A stretch of DNA of 64,000 nucleotides from Tabrizicola sp. (lineage in GTDB: Bacteria; Pseudomonadota; Alphaproteobacteria; Rhodobacterales; Rhodobacteraceae), in the NCBI RefSeq assembly GCF_022842145.1, contig NZ_JALHQD010000006.1:124001-188000 (forward strand). The letters run 5' to 3'. Positions 23,332 through 33,653 of the stretch are shown piece after piece. The position numbers were made by a program, and so were the translations under genes. Every line of letters starts with the position of its first letter. The first letter of the stretch is position 1. Below the pieces are notes generated by a model. It did not search any database. It had not been told where the DNA came from and saw only the letters and a program-made list of their open reading frames with translations.

Positions 23332-24828
23332 TCAAACCATGTGCTGCAGCACGCCATCGCCGCCAAGACTGCGGGAAACCCTGTCCCAAAGTTGTCGCAG
23401 CCGCTTTACGTGCAGGTCGTCTATGATCGCCGCAACCAGGGTGCGCAGCGCCTCGCGCCTGGCGTCTGAGGTCAAGGCACCAGGCTCCCCGGCGCCGAGG
23501 TGGAGCTTCGGAAGTGTTTTCAGGCCAAGACTCTCACGAAGGTCAGCATCCCGCATGTCGTTCTGGAAAAGGATATCGGCCAGGGCCTCTCTCGCTTCCG
23601 GCGAGCCACGCTCCACGACGGCCTCGAGATCGAAGATCGTCCGGATGTTCAGCGTCCGCAAAGCCAGGAACCGCTCTGGCCCGAATTCCAGACAGAGTTG
23701 TGCCTGCGCGACCCAGTCGATCGTCGTGTATATCCCGAACGGACTTTCGATATGCAGCATGATCGGATTGAACGCAGCAAGGTTCTGAACGTCGAAGATA
23801 TACGCTTCTTCCAGCCGAAAGGCCGTCAGGTGATCGATGCCCTCAAGCAGCGTGACCGGAACCACCTTGCAGTGCTTTTCATGCTTGATGAGGCGTTCCT
23901 TAAACGAGAAGCCCGCTTTCTGGATGACATAGGACAAAGCCGATTCCGGAATGAAGCCGAAGGCGAAGGCCAGGAACAGCCAGCCGTAACCGACACCGTC
24001 GGTCGGGTCGTATTGAGGCCAGTCAGTCCCGCGGTTGAGGTCAAGCGCGGCAAGGGCGTCCCGGCCCAGCGCGACCACCTGTTCGGTGCTTGGCACAACC
24101 CGATAGGCGACGACGAGAAGAACCAGCACAAGCATCATGTGCAGGAAGGCGCGCAGAAAGGTGACAGGCGATAGGTCGAACGCGACCACTGCCCGCAGGA
24201 AAAGCCGGATCGAAAAGAAATACGACCCCGCGAAAGCGACAGCCGCGATGGTCAGGACATTCAGATGGTGTGCATCGATCTTTGCCGGGTCGGCTAGCAG
24301 TTCTGACGGCAAGCCACCGGCTGCCAACAAGCTTGGTTTGAGCCAGGCTCCGACCATTCCGTCGGCACTGAACTGAGCAAGATGCGCGAAGATCAGAAAC
24401 ATCCCGAAACCGGAAAAGATCATGAACGGAATGGCGCAGAAGAGCAGCATCCAGTCCGACAGGACCTGGAACGGAAAGCGGGGAATTTTGGTCAGATCGC
24501 CGGTCCGCGCCTCGTGGGGAAGATCGGCGTAGTACTTGCCACGGACGAACTCGAAGCTCACCAGGGTGCTTCCGGTTCCGTTGTGCGGGTGTAGGTCAAA
24601 TGTCTTGGCGAAGAGGTCGATGAGCTCGATCCTGTTGTAGCGAACCTGAGCCCGGATAGCGATGATCGCCACCGGAAGGAACAGGGCAAGAAAGGTTGCT
24701 GCCCAGACCGGCAGGTAGAAGACCGTGGGATCGCCGGGCAGTTGCAGGATCGCAACTCCCACGGCAATGACAAGCAGCATGACCAAAGCGAGGGTAGCCC
24801 CGCCGCCGATGGTCCCGAGTGCAGGCAT
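23332..24828 (-). CDS. Polytopic membrane protein of unknown function
   Basis: A 498-residue protein and the last gene of the minus-strand operon. About six hydrophobic segments are seen near residues 9-31, 36-60, 125-150, 190-215, 228-248 and 285-305. A soluble C-terminal part of about 190 residues follows (EGIDHLTAFRLEEAYIFDVQNLAAFNP, then FLALRTLNIRTIFDLEAV), whose repeated L-x-x-x-x-I-x-T/D-x-x-x-L pattern recalls helix-hairpin-helix-like repeats. The ATG at 24828 has GGAGG seven bases upstream; the frame is open earlier but overlaps the next gene. I do not recognise a family. It may be a transporter, sensor or scaffold for the products of the operon. Confidence 0.7.
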   Translation of the reverse strand: MPALGTIGGGATLALVMLLVIAVGVAILQLPGDPTVFYLPVWAATFLALFLPVAIIAIRAQVRYNRIELIDLFAKTFDLHPHNGTGSTLVSFEFVRGKYYADLPHEARTGDLTKIPRFPFQVLSDWMLLFCAIPFMIFSGFGMFLIFAHLAQFSADGMVGAWLKPSLLAAGGLPSELLADPAKIDAHHLNVLTIAAVAFAGSYFFSIRLFLRAVVAFDLSPVTFLRAFLHMMLVLVLLVVAYRVVPSTEQVVALGRDALAALDLNRGTDWPQYDPTDGVGYGWLFLAFAFGFIPESALSYVIQKAGFSFKERLIKHEKHCKVVPVTLLEGIDHLTAFRLEEAYIFDVQNLAAFNPIMLHIESPFGIYTTIDWVAQAQLCLEFGPERFLALRTLNIRTIFDLEAVVERGSPEAREALADILFQNDMRDADLRESLGLKTLPKLHLGAGEPGALTSDARREALRTLVAAIIDDLHVKRLRQLWDRVSRSLGGDGVLQHMV

Positions 24829-24841
24829 GGGCAATCCTCCT

Positions 24842-25531
24842 TCAGGGAGTGGGGTTGATCGTGCCGTGGGCCGCAGGTCCGAAAAGGCGCTCGGGCTCCC
24901 CGCTTTCCGGTCGCAGGAAATCAGCCTTTTGCAGGAAGGCATCCTTCTCGCGCTGGAACTGGGCCGTCATGAGGCCCAGCGACCGCAGAAGTGGCGGGTA
25001 GGGCCGTGGGTCCGCCACCCAGGTCATGTGCAACCACCTTGCGTAGAATGCCTTGTGACCCGGCCGCACCGTTGCCGTAACGATGTCGGCTGCGTGGTAG
25101 ATCGCGGCTGCCATGGCGATACGCATCAGCAACATATGGACGTCCGGCTCTTCACGTTGGGCAATCGGGTCCACCGTCAGCCGGTTTGGATCGACGATGC
25201 GATCGCCGGCTGCAAGCCGCGGCGACAGGATCTCGGGGAAAACCAGGACCGCTGGTGAGCGCGCCTCATGTGCAGCCCCGGCAACATGAAGTCGGATCGA
25301 AGCGATAAGCCTGTCGTCCCGCCAGACCCCCACGGTTCGCGCGTTCGGCATCTCATCGTAGCCGTCCCACAGGCGCTTTCCCGGGATTGCACCGATCATC
25401 CCGGCGGCCTGATAGGCACGGTACCGAAGCGCCGCCACGTCCTCCTGATCTTCGCCCGTCGCGACCCGACGGACAGAGACTCGCTGGACAAGCTCGGTCA
25501 GCCGGTCTGTCCGGTTCGCAAACCCCGTCAT
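24842..25531 (-). CDS. GNAT-fold autoinducer/N-acyl-amino-acid synthase-like protein (FeeM type), paralogue 1
   Basis: A 229-residue protein with the hallmarks of FeeM-like N-acyl amino acid synthases and acyl-homoserine-lactone-synthase-like GNATs. These are ALRYRAYQAAGMI near residue 35, a YDEMPNARTVGV segment, ASIRLHV, and a long C-terminal part with a LTVDP/RIAMAAAIYHAAD core. Such enzymes join an acyl-ACP or acyl-CoA chain to the amino group of an amino acid. The start at 25531 overlaps the stop of the upstream methyltransferase-like gene by 4 bases. It is one of two related GNATs in this operon, split by a membrane methyltransferase gene. Substrates cannot be deduced. Confidence 0.72.
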   Translation of the reverse strand: MTGFANRTDRLTELVQRVSVRRVATGEDQEDVAALRYRAYQAAGMIGAIPGKRLWDGYDEMPNARTVGVWRDDRLIASIRLHVAGAAHEARSPAVLVFPEILSPRLAAGDRIVDPNRLTVDPIAQREEPDVHMLLMRIAMAAAIYHAADIVTATVRPGHKAFYARWLHMTWVADPRPYPPLLRSLGLMTAQFQREKDAFLQKADFLRPESGEPERLFGPAAHGTINPTP

Positions 25532-26088
25532 CGCTGCCCCCGGATCAAGGTTAGTTTCGGGCAAAGGAATCCGGCGCTGCGGGTGGCGGCGCGGTAGCTT
25601 TCGGCTTGGGGTGAGGCGAGGATTGTCCGTTCCTCGATCAAGGCGCTGTTCACATAGAACAGGACCAGCGCAAAGGTCAGCGCGGCAAGCAACCAGACAG
25701 GTGCTGCAATAAGCAGGGCGGCCCAGAAAAGGATGTAGGACAGATAGAATGGGTGACGCACCCACCTGTATGGCCCGCTGCCCGCGATCCGGGGCGGTGC
25801 CACGGGATCAAAGGCAAGCGTCAGCCCGTGCCCATGTGTAGCCCGCACTGCGGCATGAAAGACGCCAAGGGCGGCCAGCACTCCGACGGCAGCAAGGGCC
25901 AGTCGCCCGTTGTCCGGAGGCGAGCGCAGGATAGCGATGATCCCGGTGAGTAGTGCTGCGGCTGCAAGTACCGAGACGATCCGCATTGCCATCGGCATCC
26001 GCGTGCTGACGAAGTGATAGCGGATCGCCCAGGCAAAGTAGGCAAAGACCGCCACGGCAAGCGCAAGGAACAGCACCGACCCGATCAC
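25528..26088 (-). CDS. Isoprenylcysteine carboxyl methyltransferase (ICMT)/PEMT-like membrane methyltransferase
   Basis: A 186-residue integral membrane protein. Hydrophobic segments lie near residues 2-22, 35-57, 62-80 and 125-155. The S-adenosylmethionine-binding motif GPYRWVRHPFYLSYILFW is the signature of ICMT/NnrU/PEMT-type methyltransferases, followed by the conserved ALIEERTIL Glu-Glu. The family methylates carboxyl groups of prenylated proteins, phospholipid amines, or small lipids. Both gene ends overlap the flanking GNAT genes by 4 bases, so it is stoichiometrically coupled with them. A role in esterifying an acyl-amino-acid carboxylate is an inference from that coupling. Confidence 0.8.
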   Translation of the reverse strand: MIGSVLFLALAVAVFAYFAWAIRYHFVSTRMPMAMRIVSVLAAAALLTGIIAILRSPPDNGRLALAAVGVLAALGVFHAAVRATHGHGLTLAFDPVAPPRIAGSGPYRWVRHPFYLSYILFWAALLIAAPVWLLAALTFALVLFYVNSALIEERTILASPQAESYRAATRSAGFLCPKLTLIRGQR

Positions 26089-26699
26089 GACAAGACCTCG
26101 CCAGCGATCTTTCGACTTGCAACACGCGCAAGCGGCGAGCCGATGCGGTTGAGATGGTCCGTGTCGAAAAGATCCAGCAACATGATGATCTGCGTGCCGG
26201 CGACCGGATGCTCGAAGGACCCGCCGGTCTGGCGATAGCCGAAGGTCCCGAACAACGAGACCAGCTCTTCCCGCGTGGACAGGACGGAATGCCTGACGTT
26301 CAGGTCCAGCCCGATCTGGTAGGCCAGGCGAAAGAGAGCGATCACCGCACGCAGGCTTCGGCCGCCTTCATCGGTCACAAATCGGCTGCAGACAATGGTT
26401 TCCGGGGCACAGAGAAGGCGGGCGGACACCGCAAGATCGGCGAGGTAGCCCTCGGGGCTGACGTCTTGCAGGGCGGTTTGCCGAAGCGCCGCAACCAGGC
26501 GGCCACCCTCGCAATACGCGATCTGTCGGGACCGCTGATCTTCCGCGTCGACCAAGGTGCCGTCCGGCGAGACGCCAGGATAGGACTTGCCCTGCTCGAC
26601 CACGAAGCGCCGATGGCGAAGCCGGTAGATCTGGCCAAACCAGGGTTCCGTTGTTGCGACGAATGCCCCGCGCCGCACGGTGGCCCGGTCCTCGTTCAT
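26085..26699 (-). CDS. GNAT-fold autoinducer-synthase-like acyltransferase, paralogue 2
   Basis: A 204-residue GNAT-type protein. The motif YRLRHRRFVVEQG near residue 25 matches the R-x-x-x-F-V-x-E entry helix of autoinducer-synthase-like/FeeM enzymes. The core has RLVAALRQTAL and CSRFVTDEGGRS. The late SLFGTFGYRQTGG is the strand and turn before the last helix. It differs clearly from the paralogue at 24842-25531. It overlaps both neighbours by 4 bases. The acyl donor and acceptor are unknown; a role in an N-acyl amino acid or lipid pathway is inferred. Confidence 0.68.
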   Translation of the reverse strand: MNEDRATVRRGAFVATTEPWFGQIYRLRHRRFVVEQGKSYPGVSPDGTLVDAEDQRSRQIAYCEGGRLVAALRQTALQDVSPEGYLADLAVSARLLCAPETIVCSRFVTDEGGRSLRAVIALFRLAYQIGLDLNVRHSVLSTREELVSLFGTFGYRQTGGSFEHPVAGTQIIMLLDLFDTDHLNRIGSPLARVASRKIAGEVLS

Positions 26700-27442
26700 G
26701 CGGCGTCTCCCGCGGGCGCGCCGATGGCCCGGACAAGTGCCTCATCCCGAAGCGGGATCGGATAGACCTGTCGGAACAGCGAAAGGCACTGGGTCATGGG
26801 GCCGATTGCGTCAGGGCGTTCGGTCAGCACCTGCTTGATCAGGTGGCGGAACAGATTGGCGTGCCGAACGTCCTCCGTGACATGATCCGACAGGAAGCGT
26901 GTTCCATTGGCGAAGGCAATGCCCGCGCCCGGCGACGCGGCAATCGCCTTGGTCAGGCGTTCGGTCAGGTTCTCGAACAGGTACTCGGCGCCGATGTAGC
27001 CGAAGGGGTCGCAGCGGTCCGCCATCCGGTCCCAGACCGCGGCGACGGCAAAGGCGGCGGGGGTGGGCGCCGCGCACTGCAGGGCGGGGTTGCCGCCCAT
27101 CGCAAGGTAGTCGTCCCACGCCCAGAGACCGTGCTCCGCCTCTTCCGCCTTGTGGTGCGACAGCACCTGCATCAGACGGACCTCGGACTTGTGCAACCGA
27201 CCGATCATCCGAAAGCCGGCCTCCGTGGTCTGGCCCTGGTACATGGGGACAGCATGCAGGATTTCGCGCAGGACCAGCCGCAGATCGGTGTGCCGGCTCG
27301 GGTTCTCCAGAAGCTGCCAGCCACGCCAGGCCCTGACCTCGCGTTCGACATCCGTGACCATCGCGTCAAGTTCGGCAAAACCCTTCTCGGCGGTTTCCGA
27401 GTACTTCCCCTTGCCGCGGGGCAATCGTCCATGTGGGGTCAT
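26696..27442 (-). CDS. Haem-oxygenase-like di-iron oxidase (iron-containing redox enzyme family)
   Basis: A 248-residue, mainly helical protein of the PqqC/TENA/HDO superfamily. Candidate metal ligands are E-E-A-E-H-G near residues 100-105 and DHVTEDVRH about 90 residues later, the usual spacing of the helix pairs that hold two irons. HDO enzymes use O2 to cleave C-C or C-N bonds or N-oxygenate amino acids and fatty acids. The ATG at 27442 has GGAAAG seven bases upstream; an in-frame GTG at 27481 is an alternative. Its 3' end overlaps the GNAT start. In context it probably oxidises an amino acid or acyl intermediate. Confidence 0.75.
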   Translation of the reverse strand: MTPHGRLPRGKGKYSETAEKGFAELDAMVTDVEREVRAWRGWQLLENPSRHTDLRLVLREILHAVPMYQGQTTEAGFRMIGRLHKSEVRLMQVLSHHKAEEAEHGLWAWDDYLAMGGNPALQCAAPTPAAFAVAAVWDRMADRCDPFGYIGAEYLFENLTERLTKAIAASPGAGIAFANGTRFLSDHVTEDVRHANLFRHLIKQVLTERPDAIGPMTQCLSLFRQVYPIPLRDEALVRAIGAPAGDAA

Positions 27443-27493
27443 CAGCGTTCTTTCCGAATGATTGAGTGTTTCGTCCTGCACCCGACCTTGGGC

Positions 27494-28288
27494 CTAGCCC
27501 AGGCCCAGGGCCCGAAGCGTGCGAAAGGTGGCGGTGCCGTCCGGCGGCAGTCCTTTGCTGCGCTGGAAGCCCGCCACCGCGGCCCGCGTGTCCTTGCCGA
27601 AGACCCCGTCGACCAGAAGCAGGTCGTCCGGCGGCAGATGGCGGTTGAGAGCGGCCTGCAGGCTTTCGACCTGGGGGCCACGATCGCCGATCGTCAGCCC
27701 CGGTTTGCGCAACGCGGGCCGCGCACCGAACAGGCCGTCCTGCGACCAGCGGTCGATCAGCTCTTCCGAGGCCTCGAAATGCATGGCGTCCTCGATCCGG
27801 AAGGCCGCGCCCCAGAAGAAGCCATGGCGGTTGAAGATCGGGTGGATTGCCATCAACCCGGCCTGCGCCCGCCCGTCGCCCCGCGAATCCAGCACGCCGC
27901 CCAGCGTCAGGTCGATCGCGGTGCCCCAGGCGTGGTTCGAGATGGCCGTCGCCGAGCCGCGGACGAGCCGGCAGCAAAGCATGCCTGCGCTGCCAAGGGC
28001 GGCATGGATGGCAGGGTGATCGCGCTGGATATCGGCCAGGATGGTCCGCAGGACGGCGACGGCAGGTGCAAGGCCAGTTGCGCGGAAGGGGCCGACATCC
28101 TCGGTGACGATCAGGCCTTTGATCAGCGGGTCCACGACCGGCGCGCAGTCGGTCCCATAGGTCGGGCGCGGATTGCCGATCAGCGCAAGCATGGTCGCGT
28201 TCCGCGCGGCGTGAAGCGGGCCGTTCAGAGTCCGACGGTCCTCATGCGCAAGGGGAACAGGGTTCGTCAATCCGGATGCAATGTTCAT
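27494..28288 (-). CDS. M15-family D-Ala-D-Ala carboxypeptidase-like protein with C-terminal peptidoglycan-binding domain, leaderless
   Basis: 264 residues. The zinc site fits M15/VanY-type enzymes: His119 in SNHAWGTAIDL, Asp126 in the same block, and His170 in EDAMHFE. A PG_binding_1 domain occupies about residues 197-262 (GDRGPQVESLQAAL, DGVFGKDTRAAV, FQRSKGL). No Sec or Tat signal is present after the ATG at 28288, which has GGGAAAGG upstream. Leaderless M15 enzymes are usually phage endolysins or are exported by special routes. It is the first gene of the six-gene operon, divergent from a leaderless subtilase. Confidence 0.82.
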   Translation of the reverse strand: MNIASGLTNPVPLAHEDRRTLNGPLHAARNATMLALIGNPRPTYGTDCAPVVDPLIKGLIVTEDVGPFRATGLAPAVAVLRTILADIQRDHPAIHAALGSAGMLCCRLVRGSATAISNHAWGTAIDLTLGGVLDSRGDGRAQAGLMAIHPIFNRHGFFWGAAFRIEDAMHFEASEELIDRWSQDGLFGARPALRKPGLTIGDRGPQVESLQAALNRHLPPDDLLLVDGVFGKDTRAAVAGFQRSKGLPPDGTATFRTLRALGLG

Positions 28289-28477
28289 CGCAGGCCTTTC
28301 CCATCGTGAAGGTGCAGGCCCTAAGAAGCGCGTTCTCCGTAAATCCAACGAAAATCTTCAGTGGGTGAATCCGCGCTGCCAGCGTTAATTTATCGTAAAG
28401 CGCGCCCTCGGCTGGTGATGGGTCCGGAATTGTCTGCCACAATCCTCCGTGACGTCGCGGGCACGGGGGACTGGCGA

Positions 28478-30631
28478 ATGACCTACACATGGCAAGAGCA
28501 GGACGCGGACGAAGGGCACCTGCGCGGCCCGACCAACCCTTCGGCTACTATCGCCGGGGTCGATCCCTACGAGGACTGGGACAAGGTGACCCGCCCCTCC
28601 TCCATGGCAATGAATCAGGACAGCGGGCAACCGCTGAGGCTGATGCAGCCGGTCTACGTTGAACTGATGTCTGTGCGTCCGGGCAAGCCGATCCACACCG
28701 CGCAAGACGCAAGTGCCGCTGCACAAAAGCTGTTGGACATCTGCAGCGAAAGTCCGGAATGGATTGCCTTGCCCGATGAAACCGCTGTCTGCCTGACCAA
28801 TCTGTCGACGGCACTCAAGGTCGACGAAGCAAGTCTCCGGTTCTTTGTCTTCCGGCCAGAGAACGAAGCCTACAACACCGTCATCCTGCGCGACAAGCTT
28901 CCCTACAGGGTCCTGCGCGTCGGCCTAGTTATCCCCTTTGCGGAACAGGCCCGACCTGGTCCGCCCGCCTTGCGCAGCCCACCGGTCGCGACGGTCGCCA
29001 CCGCGATTATCGACGACCAGATCGGCTTCCTCAACGAACGGTTCCGTGCGACGGAAGATACGACGCGGATCACGCGGGTCTGGCTTCAGGGGATGCCGAC
29101 CTTCCAGAAGGTGTCGGGCAAGCCAACCGTTGCGGATGTCGGACGCGAACTCAAACCCGACGAGATCGATGCTCTGCTGAAATCCTGCCCGTTCGAGGAC
29201 GAGGCCTATCGCGAAATCTATCCGTTCGGCGTGCCATTCATCCCATCCGAGAGTGTAACCGCCAGCGGGATCGATTTTCGGACCGCCCAGGACCTGCTTG
29301 ACCCGACCTTCATCCGGCCCTTCGGCTTTCAGGCGGGGCATGGCACGCATGTCCTCGATCTCGCGGCCGGATATCCATGCGGCACGGCACCCGGCGAACG
29401 TCCCATCCTTGCGGTGCAACTGCCAAAGCTCGCGGCGGCCGAGACGTCGGGGGCCCGGCTGGACCTCTTCGTGCTGTTGGGCCTGACGCGGATCCTGCAC
29501 TGGGCGGACACGGCGTTCCATGATAAATCCGGCAACGTTACCCCCATCTCGGTCGTGGTGAACATCAGCTACGGCTTTCTCGCCGGCCCAAAGGACGGCA
29601 GCGGCTTTCTGGAGCGCGAGATCGCCCGGCTTGTCCGACTTCGGAACCAGCGGAACGGACGGACCATCAAGACGGTGGTCGTGATGCCCTCGGGCAACGG
29701 CTACCGTGACCGGACCCGCGCGCGGATGACCCTTTCGAAGGACCAGTTCGAAACCGTCCTCCTGCGCCTTCAGCCCGAGGACCGGTCGGTCAGCTTTGTC
29801 GAGATCTGGACCAGCCGCAAACCGACACTTACGCTGACCATCGCACCCCCCATCGGCCCCGCCGTGACGATCCCGCTGCGCGGCACCGGCGTCTGGGACT
29901 GGATGGATGGCCCGACAGTGATCGGACGGGTCTATGTGCAGGACCACGATAACACGCGCCGGCGCGTGGTGATCGCGCTGGCCCCGACCATCAACCACGA
30001 CCGGCCTGCGACGACGGCACCGAACGGCGCATATGGCCTGACGCTGTTGAACACCGGCGGGGACGACCTCACCGTCGACATCGACGTCCAGCGCGACGAT
30101 ACGCCCTCGACCTTCCGGCAGTATGGCCGGCAATCCTATCTCGACCACCCGCGGGTCGACCTGATCGACCCCGAAACCTTCGACAGCGTCATGCCCGACC
30201 CCGATGACTGCCCGGTCACCCGGTCGGGCACGATGTCTGCCATGGCAACGTCGGGGGCGAAGGATTTCGTCGTGGTGGGCGGGGCTTTTGACCGCCACGC
30301 CTACGAGAAAGCCGCGCTGTATTCCGCCTCGTCCGGAGGCTTGCCCTGCGAGATCGACCTCTCTGCCGTGTCCGAAGAAACCCGCGCCCATCCGGGGCGC
30401 CTTGCCACGGGGCTCTTCTCCGGCTCGACTGCGATCTTCATGGGGACCAGCGCTGCCGCACCGCAGGTGACGCGGGCGATCGTCGAACAGATCGCGGCGG
30501 GTGGCGACTATGACCTCTCGGCGACCCTGGATCCGGCCGAGAGTTTCCCGGGAAAGGACGAACGGCTGGGCGCGGGCATCCTGCCCTTCCTCCAGGAACC
30601 GGGTCGCGTGGCGCGGAGGGACGAGCTTTAG
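28478..30631 (+). CDS. S8-family subtilase, leaderless, with long N-terminal region
   Basis: 717 residues from the ATG at 28478 (the frame is open from 28361, so the start is uncertain). The catalytic triad is visible: Asp near residue 179 (AIIDDQIG), His near 288 (GHGTHV) and Ser near 658 (GTSAAAP). A region of about 170 residues before the Asp and an insert of about 100 residues between His and Ser (PSGNGYRD, then a beta-rich ETVLLRLQPED segment) are unusual. No signal peptide is seen for either start. It is divergent from the M15/GNAT/HDO operon. Possible roles are intracellular maturation of a peptide or toxin, or a defence-type protease. The substrate is unknown. Confidence 0.8.
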   Translation: MTYTWQEQDADEGHLRGPTNPSATIAGVDPYEDWDKVTRPSSMAMNQDSGQPLRLMQPVYVELMSVRPGKPIHTAQDASAAAQKLLDICSESPEWIALPDETAVCLTNLSTALKVDEASLRFFVFRPENEAYNTVILRDKLPYRVLRVGLVIPFAEQARPGPPALRSPPVATVATAIIDDQIGFLNERFRATEDTTRITRVWLQGMPTFQKVSGKPTVADVGRELKPDEIDALLKSCPFEDEAYREIYPFGVPFIPSESVTASGIDFRTAQDLLDPTFIRPFGFQAGHGTHVLDLAAGYPCGTAPGERPILAVQLPKLAAAETSGARLDLFVLLGLTRILHWADTAFHDKSGNVTPISVVVNISYGFLAGPKDGSGFLEREIARLVRLRNQRNGRTIKTVVVMPSGNGYRDRTRARMTLSKDQFETVLLRLQPEDRSVSFVEIWTSRKPTLTLTIAPPIGPAVTIPLRGTGVWDWMDGPTVIGRVYVQDHDNTRRRVVIALAPTINHDRPATTAPNGAYGLTLLNTGGDDLTVDIDVQRDDTPSTFRQYGRQSYLDHPRVDLIDPETFDSVMPDPDDCPVTRSGTMSAMATSGAKDFVVVGGAFDRHAYEKAALYSASSGGLPCEIDLSAVSEETRAHPGRLATGLFSGSTAIFMGTSAAAPQVTRAIVEQIAAGGDYDLSATLDPAESFPGKDERLGAGILPFLQEPGRVARRDEL

Positions 30632-30683
30632 GAAGCGAAGGCGGGCAGAGATGCCCGCCTGCTCCATCTGCCCGCAGAGACCC

Positions 30684-31841
30684 CTACAACTTGAACTCGT
30701 CCAAGGCCTTGCGCCAGAACGTTTCCAGGATCGTCGGGCTCACCGTTGCAGCAGCCTCCGTCTGCGAACCCGCCCGGGAGATCGCGGGGTCCACCGGCGG
30801 TGTCGCTTTCGGATCTTCCGGAAGTGCACTGGCCAACCAGGCCAGGGAGAAGTCCATGTCCGCGTAAAAGGTCTTGTCGTCCGGCTTGCCAGATCCGAGC
30901 GGACGCACACCGAAGACGGGCGTCGCGGAAGTGACCGGCTTGGCCCCGGTTCCCAGCCGATGAACATATTCGCCCAACATACAGCCCAGGACGGCCCCCG
31001 CCGCCGTATCGCCGGGGAAATGAACCCCGGCGACCGTGCGATTGACGGCAATGCGGGCGGCCAGCCGGAACGGCTGGGCTTGGGCCGTCACTCCGGCCAG
31101 CGGGCCTTCGATGCCTTTGGTCATCAGCCTGTGCAGCACGGTCGCGACGGCGAAGGCCTCGGTCGCGTGGCCGCTGGGGAAGGTCGAATGGTCCGGCGTC
31201 TGGATGATCGGCTGCAGTTCCGGCGCATAGTCGACCGGACGCTTCGCCCGGCACAGGTGCTTGACCTTCAGCTCCACGAAGATGCACAGCCGGATGACGG
31301 CCTCAAGCAGCTCCATCGTCTTCAGCCGCCGCTGGTCGTCAATCAGCGCGATGGCCCCGAAGAAGGACAGGATATCGTCGATCTGCACGCTGATCTCGGG
31401 GATACGGTCCTCGCGCAGGTCAGCGTAAGATCGCATGAAACGAAGCTGTTGCCCGAAGAAATCCGGGGCCGGACGCGCGACCTGAAAAAACATCGTCCCC
31501 AGTGTCCGTTGCTTGACGACCGTTGCCGTGCTGTTGCCCGTCACCTCGACGCCGCTGAACAGTTCGTGGTCCAGCATCAGTCCCCGCGTCGAATAGCGCA
31601 GGTAAAGGATGTCATCATCTTTCGTCGAGAATTCGTCCGGCAAGTTGGCGGGTTTCGCGTCCCAGAACCCCGCGATGCCGTCATGGGTCTGGGTCAGGGC
31701 CTGGCTTAGAAGCGGCGACGCCTCGCCGCCGGCATGGTCCGCCAGGCCTTCGTCCCCCGACCTGCCGGAGCGGCCCGACCTGCCCGATCGCCCTGACCTG
31801 CCTGATCTTCCCGACCTGCCGGACCTTCCCAGTTCGCTCAT
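30684..31841 (-). CDS. PAP2/vanadium-haloperoxidase-fold protein with (GRS)8 N-terminal tail
   Basis: 385 residues. The acid phosphatase/haloperoxidase motifs are in order: K-R-P-V-D (about 218), FPSGHATEA (about 238) and RIAVNRTVAGVHFPGD (about 275-290), which hold phosphate or vanadate. No clear transmembrane segments are seen, so it is closer to soluble haloperoxidase-like phosphatases than to membrane PAP2 lipid phosphatases. The N-terminus after MSEL is eight perfect Gly-Arg-Ser triplets, positively charged and disordered. It is convergent with the subtilase gene and divergent from the SARP-like regulator. It could halogenate or dephosphorylate a product of the cluster. Confidence 0.8.
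   Translation of the reverse strand: MSELGRSGRSGRSGRSGRSGRSGRSGRSGDEGLADHAGGEASPLLSQALTQTHDGIAGFWDAKPANLPDEFSTKDDDILYLRYSTRGLMLDHELFSGVEVTGNSTATVVKQRTLGTMFFQVARPAPDFFGQQLRFMRSYADLREDRIPEISVQIDDILSFFGAIALIDDQRRLKTMELLEAVIRLCIFVELKVKHLCRAKRPVDYAPELQPIIQTPDHSTFPSGHATEAFAVATVLHRLMTKGIEGPLAGVTAQAQPFRLAARIAVNRTVAGVHFPGDTAAGAVLGCMLGEYVHRLGTGAKPVTSATPVFGVRPLGSGKPDDKTFYADMDFSLAWLASALPEDPKATPPVDPAISRAGSQTEAAATVSPTILETFWRKALDEFKL
31758..31829 (-). repeat. Eight tandem 9-bp codon triplets encoding Gly-Arg-Ser
   Basis: Eight successive 9-base units encode GRS; GGCAGGTCG/A alternates with more divergent units, so there is also an 18-bp periodicity. Third-position differences between units show the peptide has been kept while the DNA drifted. 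Confidence 0.85.
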
Positions 31842-31970
31842 GATGTTTGCCCACCCATTTGCCTATTGAACGCATCTTCGGCGGCGCGCTCTTTCTGGGT
31901 CAATCTTGGAAATGGGAACCCTGTGGAATTTACGCCGGATTCACGCTAGCCTCATCGCGCTGGCCAGGGT

Positions 31971-33653
31971 GTGGGGCAGCGCCATGTATTTCCGCGCTGT
32001 GGCGTTTTAGTGGGGACGGGGTTGGAAGAAGACGAGGGCCGAGGTCATCTACAGATCTTCCTCATGGGTCCCTTCCGCCTGATCGGTGAGGACGGGCAAG
32101 AGATTGTGTTGCGCGCGGCCAAAGCCAGAGGATTGATCGCGCTTCTGGCCGTTTCCCCAGTCTTCCGCCGTTCGCGCATATGGCTTCAGGACAAACTCTG
32201 GAGCGACAGGGGACGCGAACAAGCCTCGGCAAGTCTTCGGCAGGCGCTGTCGCAACTTCGCGACGAACTGGGCGCACTTGATTCCGTCCTGCAGGCAAGT
32301 CGCGATGACATCTGGCTCAATCCGTCACGGATCAAGGTATTCGACAAAGTCCAGGGAACAGACCAGGCTGAGTTTCTTGAAGGCCTGGACCTGCGAGATC
32401 ACGAATTCGAGGCATGGCTTCGCACGGAACGGATGGCCAGGCTTCCTGCGGTGGCCAAATCGACAAAGACCATTGCCGCCCCGCCACAGACCCGGGCCGG
32501 AAAGGCGCGTCCCGTCTATATTGTCGCCCAAGGCGCTCCACGGTCGACCGAACGGCTTTACGAGGATATCTTTGTCGACTGCCTCGAATGCAGTCTGCGA
32601 GAGTCGCTGACCGTAGACGTGTATCGCCGTGACCCACCTGCCATCGAGATCGACCCGTTGATCATGGCGGTGCAGGCGTTCGCCGTGTCGGGCCAGGGCC
32701 ACGGCCTTCGGGTACATATCGAGGAAGGCCGCAGGCGAAGAACGCTTTGGACCGGAATGCGGATCGTCCCCGCCAACGGCGCGCCCCCCGTCGAACACAA
32801 GGATGTCCTGGCCCTGGCGTATGAAGCGACCGAGGCGCTGGCCGACGCGCAGCTTCTGGACCGGTTGCGCAGTCGCGAGCAGCTTGATGCCTCGCTCATG
32901 GCGCGCATGGCCATCCGCAAGATATTCATGTTGACGCCGGATGAGCTTGAAAGAGCCGATCTCCTGCTTGATCAGGCGTTCGAAATTGACGCGCATCCGC
33001 AATTCCTTGCCTGGCGCATTCAACTCCGTGTCATTCAGCAACTTGAACGTCATCCTCAGGGCCAAAGCACATCGCATGAACTTCCCAAACTGATTGCCGA
33101 CGCACTCGCGCTTGACCCGACGAACTCGATGGTGCTTGCCGCCACGGCCAATGCAAAGCTTCTGGTTGAGGGCGATGTCGTGGCCGGAGTCGAAATTGCC
33201 CGCGCCAGTTTGCGGATGAATTCGTCAAATCCGTTTGCCTGGGACTGCCTGAGCATCGCGCTCTTGATGAATGGCGCATCCGAAGAGGCCCATCGGCACC
33301 AGATGTGGGCAAACCAGATCGCCGCCCGATACCCGATCCGGCATTTCTGGGACATGGGGGCTGCGCTTACCTCGGTCGTGACGAACCGGCACGAGGACGC
33401 GTTGAAGCTCGCTCAAACCGCACATGCGATGGCCCCGAGCTTCCGTCCACCGCTGCGCTATCTTACTGCTCTCAACGGGGCGATCGGGCAGCACGAGGCC
33501 GCCATCACCTATGCAGCCAAGCTGCGTGAGCTTGAGCCCGACTTCAGTTTTGAACGCCTCCTATCCGATTCCGCCTATCCGGTAGCAGCACTTCGACGCA
33601 GCGGTCTCCTGACAAGTGGTGCCCTGCGCGAGCTTAGGCATCACTCCCTTTAG
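31971..33653 (+). CDS. SARP/BTAD-like transcriptional regulator with TPR-like C-terminal half
   Basis: Up to 560 residues from the GTG at 31971; GTG 32010 and TTG 32022 (after GGGGACGGGG) are alternative starts. The N-terminal winged-helix shows the OmpR/SARP pattern: LQIFLMGPFRLIGEDG, the AAKARGLIALLAVSP helix and KLWSDRGREQASASLRQALSQLRDEL. A BTAD-like helical region and TPR-like repeats follow (LADALALDPTNSMVL, RASLRMNSSNPFAW). SARP-type regulators activate secondary-metabolite clusters in actinomycetes; related architectures occur in alphaproteobacteria. It is probably the local activator of the flanking 23.3-31.8 kb genes. Confidence 0.75.
   Translation: MGQRHVFPRCGVLVGTGLEEDEGRGHLQIFLMGPFRLIGEDGQEIVLRAAKARGLIALLAVSPVFRRSRIWLQDKLWSDRGREQASASLRQALSQLRDELGALDSVLQASRDDIWLNPSRIKVFDKVQGTDQAEFLEGLDLRDHEFEAWLRTERMARLPAVAKSTKTIAAPPQTRAGKARPVYIVAQGAPRSTERLYEDIFVDCLECSLRESLTVDVYRRDPPAIEIDPLIMAVQAFAVSGQGHGLRVHIEEGRRRRTLWTGMRIVPANGAPPVEHKDVLALAYEATEALADAQLLDRLRSREQLDASLMARMAIRKIFMLTPDELERADLLLDQAFEIDAHPQFLAWRIQLRVIQQLERHPQGQSTSHELPKLIADALALDPTNSMVLAATANAKLLVEGDVVAGVEIARASLRMNSSNPFAWDCLSIALLMNGASEEAHRHQMWANQIAARYPIRHFWDMGAALTSVVTNRHEDALKLAQTAHAMAPSFRPPLRYLTALNGAIGQHEAAITYAAKLRELEPDFSFERLLSDSAYPVAALRRSGLLTSGALRELRHHSL

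What the first reader, a model, noticed from the sequence alone, without database searches (positions are those of the whole stretch)
23332..33653. Undescribed-looking gene cluster: twin acyl-amino-acid-synthase-like GNATs, membrane methyltransferase, di-iron oxidase, leaderless peptidases, PAP2/haloperoxidase and SARP regulator
Six minus-strand genes (M15 peptidase, HDO-type oxidase, GNAT, ICMT-like, GNAT, membrane protein) overlap or nearly touch, and a subtilase, a haloperoxidase-fold protein and a SARP-like regulator are divergent or adjacent. The family calls come from motifs. FeeM-like enzymes make N-acyl amino acids, ICMT enzymes methylate carboxylates, and HDO enzymes oxidise amino or fatty acids. 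The combination suggests a modified lipoamino acid or acyl-peptide product under SARP control. I know no published system with this set; the pathway itself is inference.
Basis: partly seen in the sequence, partly recalled or inferred. Interest (0 to 1): 0.78.

Follow-up and report, generated by a model that had tools for sequence, protein, structure and literature searches.

The report
Gene cluster for methylated fatty amino acids
Five neighbouring genes look like an assembly line that joins fatty acids to amino acids, caps them with a methyl group and oxidises them; related gene pairs in Loktanella bacteria may be the genes behind a known family of signal-like marine molecules.

Summary
All nine genes are present at the stated coordinates and most family calls hold, but they are not one cluster. 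(1) A minus-strand operon, 27442-23332: di-iron oxidase (HDO), FeeM-like GNAT2, ICMT-like methyltransferase, FeeM-type N-acyl amino acid synthase GNAT1, membrane protein. (2) The subtilase, PAP2/haloperoxidase and SARP-like genes are a separate module: the trio recurs in 13 of 13 loci fetched from 11 relatives, none matching the operon's genes. M15 was found with neither. Parts of the operon recur. A GNAT2-like gene lies near the HDO in 6 of 7 other HDO loci (several phyla), three with an ICMT. GNAT1-type synthases sit beside a methyltransferase in 7 of 7 other strong loci of the family, six with a membrane sensor kinase. In Loktanella, 8 of 9 genomes have such a synthase, against 7 of 294 other family genomes (the window's included). 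[quoted passage not shown] Best reading: the operon makes oxidised, methyl-esterified N-acyl amino acids. Product, HDO reaction and signalling role are inferred; Roseovarius, the other NAME genus, and the producer strains were not searched.

The parts
23332..24828 (-). MEM: membrane protein of an unnamed family, helical (probably transmembrane) N-terminal part plus a helix-hairpin-helix-like domain (model residues about 320-385); likely start 24828 (ORF opens at 24942)
24842..25531 (-). GNAT1: FeeM-type N-acyl amino acid synthase; likely start ATG 25531 (ORF opens at 25765)
   Evidence: PF21926 119.9 bits; invariant R36, D56, D59, R80, R117 in A4; homologues beside methyltransferases
25528..26088 (-). 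ICMT-like membrane methyltransferase, between the two GNATs; GTG start
   Evidence: PF04140 28.2 bits; homologues next to FeeM-type or GNAT2/HDO genes
26085..26699 (-). GNAT2: second, more divergent FeeM-like GNAT, overlaps ICMT and HDO by 4 bases each
   Evidence: PF21926 33.8 bits, cut-off 27; near HDO in 6 of 7 other HDO loci
26696..27442 (-). HDO: heme-oxygenase-like di-iron oxidase; candidate ligands E114, H117, E170, H200, D204, H207 (numbering of the ORF that opens at 27481)
27494..28348 (-). M15 peptidase with peptidoglycan-binding domain, endolysin-like; found with neither module elsewhere
   Evidence: Pfam and PHROGs; no match in the fetched loci
28361..30631 (+). Subtilase of the separate S8-PAP2-SARP module
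   Evidence: near-invariant D218, H327, S697; with PAP2 and SARP-like gene in 13 of 13 loci
30684..31841 (-). PAP2/vanadium-haloperoxidase-fold protein of the separate module
   Evidence: PF01569 52.6 bits; K194, R201, P202, S223, G224, H225, R268, H274, D278 near-invariant
31971..33653 (+). SARP-like regulator with TPRs, divergent from PAP2, separate module
   Evidence: TPR only in Pfam; with S8 and PAP2 in 13 of 13 loci

Best explanation
The operon 27442-23332 (HDO, GNAT2, ICMT, GNAT1, MEM) is a small-molecule pathway. The two FeeM-like GNATs transfer fatty acyl groups, probably from acyl carrier protein, to amino acids; [quoted passage not shown] the HDO uses O2 and two metal ions to oxidise (desaturate, hydroxylate or cleave) the product made by GNAT2; the membrane protein serves sensing or export. 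Shown here: protein families, operon overlaps, recurrence of GNAT2+HDO(+ICMT) and of FeeM+methyltransferase(+sensor kinase). Inferred: substrates, order of steps, HDO reaction, MEM role, and any signalling function.
For: FeeM assignment of both GNATs. GNAT2-like gene near the HDO in 6 of 7 other HDO loci examined, with an ICMT homologue in 3 of the 6. A methyltransferase next to 7 of 7 other strong FeeM loci in the family (2 ICMT-type, 5 class I) and to 8 of 8 further Loktanella loci (4 ICMT-type, 4 class I); in L046 methyltransferase and synthase lie in one unbroken ORF of 529 aa, a possible fusion. With the same four methyltransferase queries and the window ICMT, 1 of 13 weaker FeeM loci has one. 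Loktanella, the genus of NAME producers F13, F14 and D3 (PMC6296433, abstract), has the synthase in 8 of 9 genomes against 7 of 294 other family genomes. The six proposed HDO ligands are invariant in 38 of 38 rows, in the 3-His 3-carboxylate pattern described for MboA (PMC13185094, passages); that paper says HDOs appear to specialise in amino-acid substrates.
Against: No product is known for any of these loci. The ICMT hit is weak and does not separate ICMT from PEMT and DUF1295. GNAT2 is borderline FeeM, within the score range of the weak, OlsB-like group, and cognates in L005 and L006 have no Pfam hit. Two GNAT2-HDO loci with ample flanks (Neoroseomonas L006, Rhizobium plasmid L010) show no ICMT; the G043 contig is only 3 kb. 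Of 5 plasmid loci with a FeeM-type match that I opened (of 12 records listed), 2 have the module (L. salsilacus, Sulfitobacter) and 3 (Palleronia, Rhizobium tumorigenes, Shinella) gave no match to the methyltransferase or kinase queries. The module also occurs in genera for which I saw no NAME report (Sulfitobacter). The window genome lacks the sensor kinase: 20 of 20 listed matches start at residue 218 or later, that is, in the kinase core. MEM occurs in G087 without GNAT1. NCBI annotates the L. salsilacus synthase as an acyl-homoserine-lactone synthase.
Confidence: 0.53

Rival explanations
1. The GNATs make an aminolipid of the membrane (ornithine-lipid-like), as OlsB does, and ICMT/HDO tailor that lipid.
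For: 101 of 295 family genomes have only weak FeeM hits that look OlsB-like (my inference), and GNAT2's 33.8 bits lie in that range; the Limisphaerales cognate of GNAT2 matches an OlsB model weakly, 24.9 bits against a cut-off of 350.
Against: GNAT1 scores 119.9 bits to FeeM, far above the weak group (26-43 bits); no second acyltransferase (OlsA-like) was recognised in the operon; the HDO gene is absent from 31 of 31 congeners examined, unlike a housekeeping lipid gene.
Confidence: 0.16
2. GNAT1-type proteins are LuxI-like acyl-homoserine-lactone synthases and the methyltransferase neighbours are unrelated.
For: Annotated as acyl-homoserine-lactone synthase in L. salsilacus; weak TraI-family hit of 24.2 bits against a cut-off of 292; some homologues carry PF00765.
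Against: No Autoind_synth hit for the window protein at E<=1; methyltransferase next to 15 of 15 strong loci examined in the family, of two unrelated kinds; the adjacent sensor is a membrane kinase, not a LuxR receptor.
Confidence: 0.12
3. One reading: one nine-gene pathway for a modified lipoamino acid or acyl-peptide, controlled by the SARP-like gene.
For: Physical adjacency.
Against: S8, PAP2 and SARP-like genes travel together without the operon in 13 of 13 loci; the operon's cognates elsewhere gave no S8, PAP2, M15 or SARP match.
Confidence: 0.07

Closest known systems
FeeM / NasY N-acyl amino acid synthase clusters (stieleriacine, kyonggic and thalassotalic acids)
   Same: FeeM-family (NAS) synthase in an operon with tailoring enzymes, in some a methyltransferase and an oxidoreductase (PMC12479983: abstract and the comparative-genomics section seen)
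   Different: Those use ThiF and nitroreductase family proteins; here an HDO and an ICMT-like membrane enzyme, with two GNATs
[quoted passage not shown]
   Same: Predicted product class; Loktanella genomes carry FeeM + methyltransferase modules
   Different: Genes for NAMEs were reported unknown in 2024 (PMC11580390, introduction seen); the window is from another genus of the family and adds an HDO and a second GNAT
Heme-oxygenase-like di-iron oxidases (CADD, UndA, AetD, MboA)
   Same: Fold and ligand pattern
   Different: At most 20% identity to the solved structures listed; the link to a FeeM-like GNAT did not show in the listings
Phc system of Ralstonia (methyl-ester signal plus membrane sensor kinase; recalled, no call)
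   Same: Methyltransferase gene next to a membrane sensor kinase, in the Loktanella-type loci
   Different: Phc methylates a hydroxy fatty acid and has no acyl-amino acid synthase (recalled). The window genome has no such kinase

Membership tests
FeeM N-acyl amino acid synthase (PF21926): GNAT1 | Profile score over the curated cut-off | tested here: met
   119.9 bits against 27
FeeM N-acyl amino acid synthase (PF21926): GNAT2 | Profile score over the curated cut-off | tested here: met
   33.8 bits against 27; borderline: cognates in L005 and L006 have no Pfam hit, that in L007 26.8 bits
FeeM N-acyl amino acid synthase (PF21926) | Makes N-acyl amino acids from acyl-ACP | not testable with these tools
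   needs enzyme assay
HDO di-iron oxidase | Heme-oxygenase-like fold | tested here: met
HDO di-iron oxidase | Three His and three carboxylate metal ligands | tested here: met
   E114, H117, E170, H200, D204, H207 invariant in 38 of 38 rows; assignment by sequence spacing, metal geometry not measured; E166 and E203 are invariant too
ICMT family (PF04140) | Profile score over the curated cut-off | tested here: inconclusive
   28.2 bits against 24, but PEMT and DUF1295 also pass; isoprenylcysteine equivalog 26.1 against 160
NAME biosynthesis | Found in NAME-producing strains and required for NAMEs | not tested
   genus-level association with Loktanella only
SARP regulator | Winged-helix DNA-binding plus BTAD domain | tested here: inconclusive
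   Pfam reports TPR and one weak unrelated hit
Subtilase S8 | Asp-His-Ser triad | tested here: met
   D218, H327, S697 near-invariant in 14 rows; Pfam S8 score itself 12.5 bits, under its cut-off of 21.8
PAP2 / vanadium haloperoxidase | KX6RP, PSGH, RX5HX3D motif (recalled) | tested here: met
   residues near-invariant; phosphatase and haloperoxidase not distinguished

The most novel reading that the evidence does not exclude
Probability: 0.3. Interest if true: 0.85.

Novelty: new variant of a known kind. Interest (0 to 1): 0.65.

Why it matters
NAMEs have been known from Roseovarius and Loktanella without genes (PMC11580390, introduction). The comparison gives a concrete two-gene candidate in sequenced Loktanella, with an adjacent kinase that could be the receptor, so both synthesis and the suspected signalling role become testable by deletion. 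The HDO cassette adds an oxidase class that did not show, in the listings, together with acyl-amino acid synthases.

Full report
Observation. Pfam supports FeeM for both GNATs (119.9 and 33.8 bits, cut-off 27), ICMT for the small membrane protein (28.2 bits, cut-off 24, with PEMT and DUF1295 also passing), M15 + PG_binding_1, and PAP2; the oxidase is at 27.5 bits to Haem_oxygenas_2, just under its cut-off of 28.9, and the subtilase and SARP-like proteins are weak. The 536-aa membrane protein has no informative library hit. HDO/GNAT2, GNAT2/ICMT and ICMT/GNAT1 overlap by four bases each.

Two modules, not one. The subtilase has matches in 12 of 61 genomes searched (the window's own and 11 relatives) and the PAP2 protein in 29 of 61. 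I fetched 13 subtilase loci from the 11 relatives, leaving out one 201-base fragment (G017:C325). All 13 also give a PAP2 and a SARP-like match, and none gives a match at E<=1e-4 to HDO, GNAT1, GNAT2, ICMT, MEM or M15; the stretches are 7.5 to 20 kb, and the SARP match in L114 is weak (42 bits). The subtilase triad and the PAP2 motif are near-invariant. So the SARP-like gene most likely serves this trio. The HDO was found in 3 of 61 genomes, the window's own and two distant ones, and in none of 31 congeners.

FeeM plus methyltransferase. In 295 genomes of the family (294 genera), 109 have a PF21926 match, but only 8 score over 100 bits, the window's own included. I fetched stretches of up to 20 kb around the other seven and around 13 of the weaker hits. 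All seven have a methyltransferase next to the synthase: ICMT-type in L050 and L052; class I of one kind in L046, L047, L048 and L051; another class I type in L049. In L046 methyltransferase and synthase share one 529-aa ORF. Six of seven have a membrane sensor kinase with a shared N-terminal domain. Of the 13 weaker loci, one (L054) has the class I methyltransferase and none that kinase domain; this control saw only methyltransferases like my queries. The synthase of G421 is 99.4% identical to one of Loktanella salsilacus, where the order is kinase, ICMT, synthase, the last two overlapping by four bases; Sulfitobacter sp. OXR-159 has methyltransferase (next to a transposase), GNAT, kinase. 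Three other plasmid loci with FeeM-type matches (Palleronia, Rhizobium tumorigenes, Shinella) gave no match to the methyltransferase or kinase queries, and 7 of the 12 records listed were not opened.

Loktanella. In the genus of G421, 8 of 9 genomes have a strong match to the synthase alignment A4, against 7 of 294 other genomes of the family by Pfam, the window's included (Fisher p 3.5e-11; the searches used different models, A4 contains the G421 protein, and the genomes are related, so the p-value is only indicative). G706 is L. fryxellensis, as a protein so named is 100% identical there and lies on a contig of the same length. The eight further loci, from seven genomes, all have a methyltransferase (4 ICMT-type, 4 class I) and seven of eight the kinase; L. 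fryxellensis lacks it in the 17 kb seen. Loktanella sp. [quoted passage not shown] Seven literature searches listed no paper that describes such a module, as far as titles, abstracts and the passages seen tell; that library lacks most subscription papers.

Window branch. A tree puts window GNAT1 with metagenome proteins (100/97 support), apart from the kinase-linked groups. Four contig lengths are shared between the listed MEM and GNAT1 homologues (5527, 4823, 8027, 3534; 0.3 expected), one of them (5527) with the HDO list as well, so MEM probably goes with GNAT1; against this, MEM stands alone in G087. MEM's model has a long-helix N-terminal part and a helix-hairpin-helix-like domain. The window genome has 20 matches to the kinase, all in its catalytic core.

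Mechanism. I read the operon as: GNATs acylate amino acids, ICMT methylates the carboxylate, HDO oxidises. That similar ICMT-like genes are found with GNAT1-type synthases and with GNAT2-HDO pairs, and that the window has both around one ICMT, is the main argument that all act on one class of compound. Substrate identity, HDO chemistry and signalling are inference. On checking I lowered confidence from 0.55 to 0.53 and interest from 0.66 to 0.65, because of the three plasmid loci without partners and MEM alone in G087.

Noticed in passing
window 28361-33653; L111-L123: Conserved trio of subtilase, PAP2/haloperoxidase-fold protein and SARP-like TPR regulator in 13 loci of 11 relatives; a system of its own, function unknown.
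   Followed up: partly
window 30684-31841, residues 1-40: The PAP2 protein begins with a GRS/Gly-X-Y repeat; seven of its glycines (11 to 38) are near-invariant in the 14-row alignment.
   Followed up: no
window 23332-24828: MEM: membrane protein family with a helix-hairpin-helix-like domain, 186 homologues, no Pfam domain shown for the 120 listed.
   Followed up: partly
L046 8853-10442: Methyltransferase and FeeM-type synthase in one unbroken 529-aa ORF, a possible fusion protein.
   Followed up: no
L049 9647-14853: FeeM-like gene overlapping a class I methyltransferase, followed by flavin-oxidase- and halogenase-like ORFs (my reading).
   Followed up: no
L005 10619-12591: Flavodoxin, second FeeM-like GNAT and second HDO beside the GNAT-HDO-ICMT cassette; a possible electron donor for the HDO.
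   Followed up: partly
L070 (NZ_CP069303.1): A 4.6-Mb Shinella record is listed as a plasmid; it may be a mislabelled chromosome.
   Followed up: no
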